Shown here piece after piece: positions 5,624-9,646 of a DNA stretch of 11,336 bases; the stretch's first letter is position 1; each line of letters begins with the position of its first letter. The notes under the pieces were generated by a model. The model saw nothing but the letters and a program-made list of their open reading frames with translations. It searched no databases and had not been told where the DNA came from. Source of the DNA: Thermoanaerobacterales bacterium (GTDB lineage: Bacteria > Bacillota > Thermosediminibacteria > Thermosediminibacterales > Tepidanaerobacteraceae); NCBI GenBank assembly GCA_012839145.1, contig DUNY01000275.1, forward strand, positions 1 to 11,336, in the 5' to 3' direction. A program made the position numbers and the translations under genes.

Positions 5624-8134
5624 ATGTTGGGGATATTAAAAAAAATCTTAGGCGACAGTAATGAAAAGGAAGTCAGGAAACTTCAAAAAACAGTTGATAC
5701 GGTCAATGCATTGGAACCTTCCATGGAGAAGCTGTCCGACGAACAGCTTCGCAGTAAAACCGATGAATTCAAAGAACGGCTATCTCGGGAGGAAACTTTG
5801 GATGATATATTGCCTGAGGCTTTTGCGGTGGTAAGAGAAGTATCCAAGAGGACGCTAAATATGAGGCCTTTTGATGTCCAGGTGATGGGCGGTATTGTCC
5901 TGCATCAAGGACGTATAGCAGAGATGAAAACCGGATAAGGCAAAACCTTGGTGGCAACCATGCCTGTTTATTTAAATGCTCTTACCGGCAAAGGTGTCCA
6001 TGTAGTTACTGTGAACGACTATCTGGCGAAAAGAGACAGTGAATGGATGGGCAAGATATATAATTTTTTAGGCCTGGAAGTTGGCCTTATTGTTCACGGC
6101 TTGGATTTCGAAGAACGTAAAAAAGCCTATAATGTCGATATAACCTATGGCACCAACAATGAATTCGGTTTTGACTATCTTAGGGATAATATGGTGCTAT
6201 ACAAAGAACATATGGTTCAAAGGCCTTTAAACTATGCCATCGTTGATGAAGTTGACAGTATATTAATTGACGAGGCCAGGACTCCACTTATAATATCGGG
6301 GCAAGCTGAAGAATCTACGGACATCTATTATAAATTTGCTCGATTTGTTCCTCGGCTGATTCAAGGTGAAGATTATACAGTGGATGAAAAGGCCCATAGT
6401 GTTATGCCTACGGAAAAAGGCATTAAGAAAGCCGAAGGTTTTTTACGTGTTGAGAATCTCTATGATGAAGAAAACATGGAACTTTTACATCACCTCCAGC
6501 AAGCTTTAAAGGCCCACGCTCTTATGAAACGGGACCGAGATTATGTTGTAAAAGATGACCAGGTTATAATAGTTGATGAATTTACCGGCAGACTTATGTT
6601 TGGCCGAAGATACAGTGACGGATTGCACCAGGCTATCGAAGCAAAGGAAGGTGTCAAAGTTGAAAATGAAAGCAAGACATTGGCAACCATAACCTTCCAG
6701 AATTACTTCCGAATGTATAAAAAACTTGCCGGTATGACCGGTACTGCAGCCACTGAAGAAGAAGAATTTCGTGGAATTTACGGTCTTGATGTAGTTGTTA
6801 TACCGACAAATAAACCCATGATAAGGATTGACCATCCAGATGCCATTTACAAAACCGAAAAGGGCAAACTAAATGCAGTGGTTGAAGAAATTGAAGAGTG
6901 TTACCGCAAAGGGCAGCCTGTACTTGTGGGCACAATTTCCATTGAAAAGTCCGAGCTGTTAAGCGGTCTGCTCAAGCGCAAGGGGATTCCCCATGAAGTA
7001 TTAAATGCAAAGTATCATGAAAAGGAAGCTGAAATAGTTGCCCAAGCCGGGAAAAGAGGTGCAGTCACAATTGCCACCAACATGGCCGGTCGGGGTACAG
7101 ACATAGTGCTAGGGGATGATGTGCCGAGACTGGGTGGTCTTCATATTATCGGTACTGAAAGACATGAAGCCCGCCGAATTGATAACCAGCTTCGAGGTCG
7201 TTCCGGCCGTCAGGGTGATCCTGGTTCTTCCAGGTTTTATATATCCTTGGAAGATGACCTGATGCGGCTTTTTGGAGCGGATAATATAAAAGGCATAATG
7301 GATCGGTTAGGTTTGGAAGAGGATCAGCCCATCGAGCACCCGTTGATAACAAAGTCTATTGAAAATGCTCAAAAGAAGGTAGAAGCTCGCAATTTCGACA
7401 TAAGAAAGCATGTTTTGGAATATGATGATGTGATGAACACCCAGCGTGAAGTCATGTATTCCCAGCGCCGACAAGTACTGGAAAACGAAAACCTCAAGGA
7501 AAGTATTATAGAAATGATTACTGGGGTTATAGAACGATTACTCGACATATATGCTGCTAAGGAGATTCATCCTGAGGAGTGGAATATAAAGGGTCTTTCA
7601 GAATACCTTGTGGATATATTCCAAATAAAACACATCATCGATGAGGATAAATTGGCAGATATGTCCCGAGAGGACCTTCGGGAGATTATCATTGAAAGAG
7701 CACAAGCTGCCTATGAGAAAAAAGAAGAAGAACTGGGCTATGATACCATGCGTGAGCTGGAACGGTACATCATGCTCAAAATCGTGGATCAAAAATGGAT
7801 GGATCACATCGATGCCATGGAACAACTGCGAGAAGGCATAGGGTTAAGAGCTTACGGTCAGCGGGATCCTGTGATAGAGTATAAATTTGAAGGTTATGAG
7901 ATGTTCCAGGAAATGATAAAGAACATCCAGGAAGATACACTGCGATATCTTTTCAGGGTTCAGGTGAAAGCAGCCCCTGAAAGGCGGCAAAAGACTTACA
8001 ACATGACATATTCTCATAATGAAGGTGGAGAAAAACCTCAACCGGTGCGCAAACAAAAGAAAATAGGTCGCAACGATCCATGCCCCTGTGGTAGTGGGAA
8101 AAAATACAAAAAATGTTGTGGAAGAGCAGTTTAA
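5624..8134 (+). pseudogene. secA: secA, preprotein translocase ATPase, broken by an in-frame TAA
   Basis: SecA is the motor that drives unfolded preproteins through SecYEG using ATP. Here 836 codons are collinear with full-length Firmicutes SecA, but codon 105 is TAA (5936-5938), splitting it into 104 residues and a 728-codon open frame from TTG 5948. Both parts share one frame. The stop replaces the Glu of Walker A: MKTG-stop-GKT. Everything else looks intact: [28 protein letters not shown] (Walker B, from about 208), the preprotein cross-linking part, [28 protein letters not shown] (motif VI), the helical wing, and a zinc C-terminus [13 protein letters not shown]. The start has GAGGTGAT upstream; prfB follows 38 nt later. 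A restart at TTG 5948 (weak TAAGG upstream) would lack the P-loop. One G-to-T change (GAA to TAA) explains it; base error, recent mutation or dispensable copy cannot be told apart here. Confidence 0.93.
5936..5938 (+). other. In-frame TAA at the Walker A glutamate of secA
   Basis: Context ACC GGA TAA GGC AAA ACC; the family has GAA or GAG here (T-G-E-G-K-T). A single substitution restores the motif, and no frameshift is involved. Confidence 0.95.
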
Positions 8135-8172: not shown

Positions 8173-9277
8173 ATGCTTGATGAATACAGAATAGAGATTG
8201 AGGCCATGAAGCCTGTTTTGACGGAATTGAGGGATTCACTTTGAAATCGACAAGATAAAGTCCGAGATAAACCGGTTAGAGCAAAAAACAATGGCTTCAA
8301 ATTTTTGGGACGACCAAGAATCAGCACAGAAAATATTACAACAATTAAACAATTTTAAAAGCAAATTTAACAATTTCATTACCTTGGAAAAGATGTATGA
8401 TGACCTAGAAACTTTAATTCAGCTCTGTGCCGAAGCCGATGATCAGGAACTCAAGCAGGAATTGCTTGATAAAACGAAAGACTTCAAAAAGCTATTAGAA
8501 AAAACAAAATTGGAGACCCTTCTCTCCGGTAATTATGATGCGAAAAATGCCATTCTTACCCTTCATGCGGGAGCAGGAGGCACTGAAGCCCAAGATTGGG
8601 TGGGCATTTTGCTCCGCATGTATACCAGATGGGCTGAAGATAAAGGTTATAATGTAACCACCCTTGATTTACTGCCCGGTGACGAAGCCGGGGTAAAAAG
8701 TGTAACCATACTGGTGGAGGGTATGAATGCTTATGGATATCTAAAGTCGGAAAAGGGTGTTCACCGCTTGGTTAGAATTTCACCTTTTGATGCAGCAGGT
8801 AGGCGTCATACATCCTTCGCCTCAGCAGATGTTATGCCCGAAATTGATGATGATATTGAGGTGGATATAAAACCTGAAGATCTTAAAATAGATACTTTTC
8901 GTTCCGGAGGGGCAGGAGGCCAGCATGTGAACAAAACTGAATCGGCGGTTCGCATAACTCATATTCCTACAGGCACAGTGGTATCCTGTCAGAATGAGCG
9001 CTCCCAGCAAAGCAACCGGAACACCGCAATGAAGATTTTAAGAGCAAAGCTCTTCGATTTATATGAGGAAGAGCAGCAAAAGGAGCTTGACAAAATAAGA
9101 GGCAAACAGAAAGAAATAGCTTGGGGAAGTCAGATAAGATCCTACGTTTTTCATCCTTACAGCCTTGTGAAAGATCACAGGACCAATGTAGAAGTCGGCA
9201 ATGTTCAGGCCGTGATTGACGGTGAGCTGGATGAATTCATAAATGCATATTTAAAACTTGTTGCAAGTAAATATTGA
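8173..9277 (+). CDS. prfB: Peptide chain release factor 2 (programmed +1 frameshift)
   Basis: RF2 reads UGA and UAA in the ribosomal A site and triggers peptide release. The full product is 367 residues: 23 codons from ATG 8173 to CTT 8239-8241, then a +1 shift past the in-frame TGA (8242-8244), continuing at GAA 8243. Seen in it are an N-terminal helical domain containing ASNFWDD, SPF (residues 203-205), the tripeptide specific to RF2 that recognises UGA/UAA, and GGQ (248-250) in RSGGAGGQHVNKTESAVR, the catalytic hydrolysis motif. Length and motifs are complete. The ribosome-binding site GAGGGG lies 6 nt before the ATG, and the gene sits 38 nt after secA with no terminator between, so the two are likely co-transcribed as in other Firmicutes. 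Regulation is by its own product: low RF2 lets the ribosome stall at TGA and slip. Confidence 0.97.
8230..8244 (+). promoter_or_regulatory. RF2 programmed frameshift site
   Basis: AGGG (8230-8233) acts as an internal Shine-Dalgarno 5 nt before the slippery CTT, followed by TGA. Leu-tRNA slips from CUU to UUU. The base after TGA is A, not the C most common in prfB genes, which may make termination somewhat stronger. Confidence 0.93.
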
Positions 9278-9516
9278 TTCCGGTGTAGAAAATTACTCCG
9301 GTGAAAGATGATAGCACCTCTTCCTAAAGCAAGACCTGTTACTTTTAGCTTGGTCCTGAAATACGCAGGGCTAGCGGCAATTCGGCGTCCTGCCCAGTGC
9401 CCGTCAGCGTGCGTCCTGCAGCTGACCCTCTATGTTTATCCTGTAGGCGCGGTCTTTGACCGCCAGCTATTAACAACGGTCTTACTTGAAAGGAATCTTT
9501 TGCCGTCATCTTCACC

Positions 9517-9566
9517 TCGGTAAGTATAAACTAAAATCAATATTGATTTTAGTTTATACTTACCGA
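9517..9566 (+). repeat. Perfect 50-bp palindrome
   Basis: Bases 9517-9541 are the exact reverse complement of 9542-9566, centred on CAATATTG with no spacer. The outer ends are TCGGTAAGTA and TACTTACCGA. As RNA it would form a hairpin of over 20 bp; as DNA it could extrude a cruciform. The arm length is typical of transposon terminal repeats, but no transposase is near. Confidence 0.95.
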
Positions 9567-9593
9567 CAACATAATACAGAATTTTTGACAAAG

Positions 9594-9646
9594 AGAGCTG
9601 GTCTTGAATTAGAAAGTATTTTCTATAGGAAAGACGGCTCTTTTTT
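9594..9646 (+). terminator. Terminator-like hairpin before the metal operon
   Basis: AGAGC+GTCTT (9594-9605) pairs with AAGAC+GCTCT (9631-9641) with a small internal loop. An inner TAGAAA/TTTCTA stem (9610-9625) and a run of six T follow. It probably ends transcription coming from secA-prfB, or it could be an attenuator. Confidence 0.7.

What the first reader, a model, noticed from the sequence alone, without database searches (positions are those of the whole stretch)
5936..5938. In-frame stop inside the Walker A motif of secA
The sequence shows MKTG-TAA-GKT in an otherwise full-length, motif-complete SecA. SecA is normally essential, and a protein cut here, or restarted at TTG 5948, cannot bind ATP properly. 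The rest of the gene shows no decay, so the change is very recent, an error, or recoded. One substitution (GAA to TAA) accounts for it.
Basis: partly seen in the sequence, partly recalled or inferred. Interest (0 to 1): 0.8.

Follow-up and report, generated by a model that had tools for sequence, protein, structure and literature searches.

The report
Stray stop codon in draft-genome secA
The stop codon inside this bacterium's secA gene is really in the assembled sequence, but otherwise identical database copies of the protein lack it, so it is most likely a one-base error in a fragmented draft genome rather than biology.

Summary
A TAA at 5936-5938 lies in frame in secA (5624-8134) and splits it into 104- and 728-residue pieces. 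The window lies in a fragmented draft genome (2.58 Mb, 493 contigs, 89.3% complete) in which one secA was found. A full-length SecA recorded on six contigs (P0001) matches this one at all 835 other residues and has glutamate at 105; three more differ by one further residue each. The 109 other secA loci fetched and the 120 proteins listed all have glutamate there. Both release factors look intact, TAA ends 40 of 73 sampled genes, and no TTA anticodon is among 26 tRNA genes found. Neither piece keeps the P-loop GKT. In 79,869 aligned bases of this draft, two more single-event breaks occur in otherwise intact genes. Best reading: a private one-base consensus error. A rare real mutant is the main rival; recoding is very unlikely. 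Only reads would settle it. Low interest. In passing: a repeated, strongly folding 235-bp intergenic element at 9283-9519.

The parts
5624..8134 (+). secA frame, 836 codons, with one internal stop
   Evidence: end-to-end alignment to a relative at 89% identity
5936..5938 (+). in-frame TAA, codon 105, inside Walker A
5624..5938 (+). 104-residue N-terminal piece with its stop
5948..8134 (+). 728-residue piece from the first possible restart codon, TTG; lacks GKT
8173..9277 (+). prfB (release factor 2) with its own CTT-TGA frameshift site at 8239-8244; bears on the recoding question
   Evidence: model match of 8291-9274; start and frameshift site read

Best explanation
The TAA is a one-base error, or noise of the consensus, in a fragmented draft genome of a Tepidanaerobacteraceae-like bacterium (probably metagenome-assembled: an inference from 493 contigs and 3.83% contamination, no record says so). 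The organism's working secA most likely has an ordinary sense codon there and makes a normal 836-residue SecA. Shown: the stop is in the contig; an otherwise identical full-length protein exists; the same draft has other single-event breaks in conserved genes. Inferred: that the reads of this sample would not support the stop.
For: P0001 (six contigs, longest 46,510 bases) equals the window frame at all 835 other residues and is not stopped at 105; P0002-P0004 (one contig each) are not stopped either. 109 of 109 other secA loci fetched and 120 of 120 listed proteins have Glu there. Another gene of the window, the HD-GYP protein, is identical to a database protein over all its 392 residues (P0121), so the contig is not from a decayed or divergent strain. 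P0002-P0004 each carry one further residue difference, so single differences are ordinary in this set; 342 of 7,515 possible single substitutions in the gene would be nonsense. The same draft has an in-frame TGA in a B12-binding radical SAM gene, not stopped in a near-identical protein, and a frameshift at a short A run in codY: three breaks in 79,869 aligned bases. SecA is essential in bacteria (recalled) and no second copy was found.
Against: No reads or coverage were available. Where P0001-P0004 come from is not shown, so their independence is unknown. Four other long housekeeping genes searched for (rpoB, valS, gyrA, ileS) showed no internal stop in their main matches, so the draft is not riddled with errors. 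The radical SAM gene is also cut short in a third near-identical protein (P0258), so some breaks could be real.
Confidence: 0.88

Rival explanations
1. A real, very recent nonsense mutation in some cells of the sampled population (dying, or complemented by a copy missing from the draft), caught in the assembly.
For: The rest of the gene shows no decay. The draft is only 89.3% complete, so a second copy could be missing.
Against: SecA is essential (recalled). The first restart, at codon 109, leaves GKT out of both pieces. No second SecA found. An otherwise identical protein is intact.
Confidence: 0.1
2. The TAA is decoded: local readthrough, a suppressor tRNA, or a changed code.
For: The frame is open and conserved beyond the stop.
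Against: RF1 is open over 5-359 of 361 model positions and RF2 matches its model and keeps its usual TGA frameshift site. TAA ends 40 of 73 sampled genes. None of the 26 tRNA genes found has a TTA anticodon, though the set is incomplete. The stop is present in none of 109 other loci.
Confidence: 0.01
3. Reinitiation at TTG 5948, behind the SD-like GGATAAGG, makes a split SecA that works in two pieces.
For: A purine-rich stretch lies just before TTG 5948.
Against: Codons 105-108, which include the P-loop GKT, belong to neither piece, so ATP binding should be lost. No 728-residue form is among the 120 listed of 7,992 scored hits, although clustering of that database could hide one.
Confidence: 0.01

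Closest known systems
SecA, preprotein translocase ATPase (NF009538 / TIGR00963 / PF07517)
   Same: Model matches along the whole frame; the nearest relatives listed with an organism name are Tepidanaerobacter acetatoxydans SecA at about 90% identity.
   Different: One in-frame TAA at codon 105 that none of the compared relatives has.
Spurious premature stops and frameshifts in draft assemblies (known artefact class, recalled)
   Same: A single-base event in an otherwise perfect gene, absent from near-identical database proteins, with other such breaks in the same draft.
   Different: Reads not available to prove it.

Membership tests
SecA | Match to SecA models over the full length | tested here: met
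   Both pieces match NF009538 and TIGR00963 in order; the 728-residue piece alone passes both cut-offs.
SecA | Walker A motif TGEGKT intact | tested here: not met
   TG-stop-GKT in the contig.
SecA | C-terminal zinc-binding SEC-C motif | tested here: met
   ...[18 protein letters not shown] at the C-terminus; PF02810 precomputed for the full-length P0001.
Recoded stop codon | Stop conserved among relatives at the same codon | tested here: not met
   0 of 109 other loci fetched, 0 of 120 listed proteins.
Recoded stop codon | Loss or change of the release factor, or a cognate suppressor tRNA | tested here: not met
   prfA and prfB present; no TTA anticodon in the 26 tRNA genes found, an incomplete set.
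Sequencing or assembly error | Reads of the same sample do not support the base | not testable with these tools
   No reads on hand.
Sequencing or assembly error | Near-identical sequences from other contigs lack the change | tested here: met
   P0001-P0004, nine contigs in all; residue 105. Their sources are not shown.

The most novel reading that the evidence does not exclude
A living strain really carries the TAA and makes a little SecA by readthrough at the Walker A codon, so that secretion is limited by termination efficiency.
Probability: 0.01. Interest if true: 0.7.

Novelty: not a real feature. Interest (0 to 1): 0.07.

Why it matters
Mainly a caution: single-base breaks in essential genes of fragmented drafts should be checked against near-identical sequences before recoding or gene loss is claimed. 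If the stop were real, it would be a rare case of an essential ATPase with a stop in its P-loop.

Tried and rejected
Second secA in the genome: none found by family, protein or DNA search. Global recoding: rejected on release factors, terminator use and the tRNAs found. Recoding conserved among relatives: rejected. Stops flagged in the secA of two relatives (L097, L104) are their normal terminal stops.

Rows dropped from the count of broken genes: one search listed 11 stop rows in 7 alignments. I kept two (secA, radical SAM) and dropped five alignments with nine rows: two whose stop lies within 10 codons of the C-terminal end (L131, L178) and three on one contig (L251) with stops near the N-terminus or in a short reverse-strand ORF. 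I did not examine those further, so the true number of breaks may be higher. A weaker valS match on C248 shows five stops; the ileS match on the same stretch, 1088-2158, shows none, so those stops probably lie beyond a gene end; not followed.

Papers: two searches, listings and openings of abstracts only; no paper was read and none is relied on.

Full report
What is there. The window is bases 1-11336 of contig C123 of a draft genome of 2,577,349 bases in 493 contigs, 89.31% complete and 3.83% contaminated. That it is metagenome-assembled is my inference. Its nearest relatives listed with an organism name, by SecA, are Tepidanaerobacter acetatoxydans at about 90% identity. In the frame of ATG 5624 a TAA stands at 5936-5938, codon 105 of 836; the frame then runs open to 8134. 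Both pieces match SecA models back to back.

Could the pieces work? The first start codon after the stop is TTG 5948, codon 109. Codons 105-108, which include the GKT of the P-loop, therefore belong to neither piece. From the established role of that motif, neither piece nor a mixture should bind ATP normally.

Is it shared? A protein search with the downstream piece scored 7,992 candidates (a capped set), all at the cut-off, of which the best 120 were listed. P0001, recorded on six contigs (longest 46,510 bases), is identical to the window's frame at all 835 other residues and has glutamate at 105. P0002, P0003 and P0004, one contig each, also have glutamate there and differ from the window frame by one residue elsewhere. 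All 120 listed proteins have glutamate in that place. So do 109 of 109 other secA loci fetched: 80 of the 596 stretches matched, and 29 of the 60 relatives (some may be the same organism twice); the codon is GAA in 90 and GAG in 19. The sources of P0001-P0004 are not shown, so I cannot say how many independent samples they represent. A second gene of the window, the HD-GYP protein, was searched in the same way (capped at 8,000 candidates): its best hit, P0121, is identical over its whole 392 residues. The contig is thus not from a visibly divergent or decayed strain.

Is the code changed? Nothing suggests so. prfA is present and open at 564.8 bits over 5-359 of 361 model positions. prfB lies in the window just after secA and passes its model's cut-off. 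Its start, ATG 8173, is followed by CTT TGA at 8239-8244 with the long frame continuing in +1 (read), which is the usual RF2 autoregulatory frameshift (recalled). Of 74 alignments that reach a reference gene's end, 73 run into a terminator, 66 of them within five codons: TAA 40, TGA 20, TAG 13; in one the contig ends first. The tRNA search found 26 tRNA genes; none has the anticodon TTA. That set is incomplete: the search scored 150 of 171 candidates and no tRNA-Glu(TTC) is in it.

How clean is this draft? I compared 62 stretches of it (320,528 bases) with 1,026 ORFs from 1.2 Mb of a single-contig relative, G010. Eighty-seven alignments at 55% identity or more were kept, covering 79,869 bases on 18 of the 62 stretches, mean identity 80.4%. 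Besides secA, a 562-codon B12-binding radical SAM gene (L252) has an in-frame TGA. A near-identical 562-residue protein, P0241 (one contig), is not stopped there and differs at one other residue; another, P0258, has 269 residues and departs over its last seven. CodY (L131) is split between two frames at a short A run, as a one-base length change would do; whether near-identical copies are intact was not tested. That makes three single-event breaks in conserved, otherwise intact genes in about 80 kb. Five further alignments with stops were dropped (see Tried and rejected). Against a very poor draft: rpoB, valS, gyrA and ileS showed no internal stop in their main matches, although gyrA is divided between two contigs and ileS is cut by a contig end.

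Weighing. About 4.6% of single substitutions in this gene (342 of 7,515) make a stop, and single-residue differences occur in three of the four near-identical database proteins. A nonsense error in one assembly is therefore unremarkable. For an essential (recalled), apparently single-copy gene with an otherwise identical intact protein on record, an error of the consensus is much the likeliest reading. A rare real mutant remains possible. Recoding and split function are not supported. Without reads the matter is not proven.

In passing. Window 9283-9519 is a dispersed intergenic element, described under Noticed in passing. I see no link to secA.

Noticed in passing
window 9283-9519: A roughly 235-bp intergenic element between prfB and a metal-transport gene pair. 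A search with 9280-9600 gave 33 match pieces in this draft, two of them at the query's own place (40 of 48 candidates scored), and matches in 8 of 13 genomes, own included. It folds strongly as RNA on both strands (z -5.4 and -4.7), has no Rfam match at gathering score (weak sub-threshold ones, mostly on the palindrome) and none in the plasmid collection. Seven copies aligned gave weak covariation: 3 of 36 pairs kept through changes on both sides, unfavourable covariation term. It looks more like a MITE-type repeat than a conserved RNA, but this is open.
   Followed up: partly
window 9517-9566: A perfect 50-bp palindrome (25-nt arms, no loop) right at the end of that element; could be a terminator, part of the element, or an assembly fold-back.
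   Followed up: no
L252 1663-3348 (contig C118 of the draft): B12-binding radical SAM gene (PF13311 in its relatives) with an in-frame TGA at 2728; one near-identical protein is full length (P0241), another is cut short (P0258).
   Followed up: partly
L131 6303-7081 (contig C191 of the draft): codY split between two frames at a short A run.
   Followed up: partly
L105 (genome G005, single contig of about 3.4 Mb): secA of this relative is split by a frameshift after its Walker A (two overlapping tblastn pieces in different frames); possibly also an error, not checked.
   Followed up: no
window about 1279-1476: A small cold-shock-like protein ([16 protein letters not shown]...) starting with TTG, read by eye and named from memory.
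   Followed up: no
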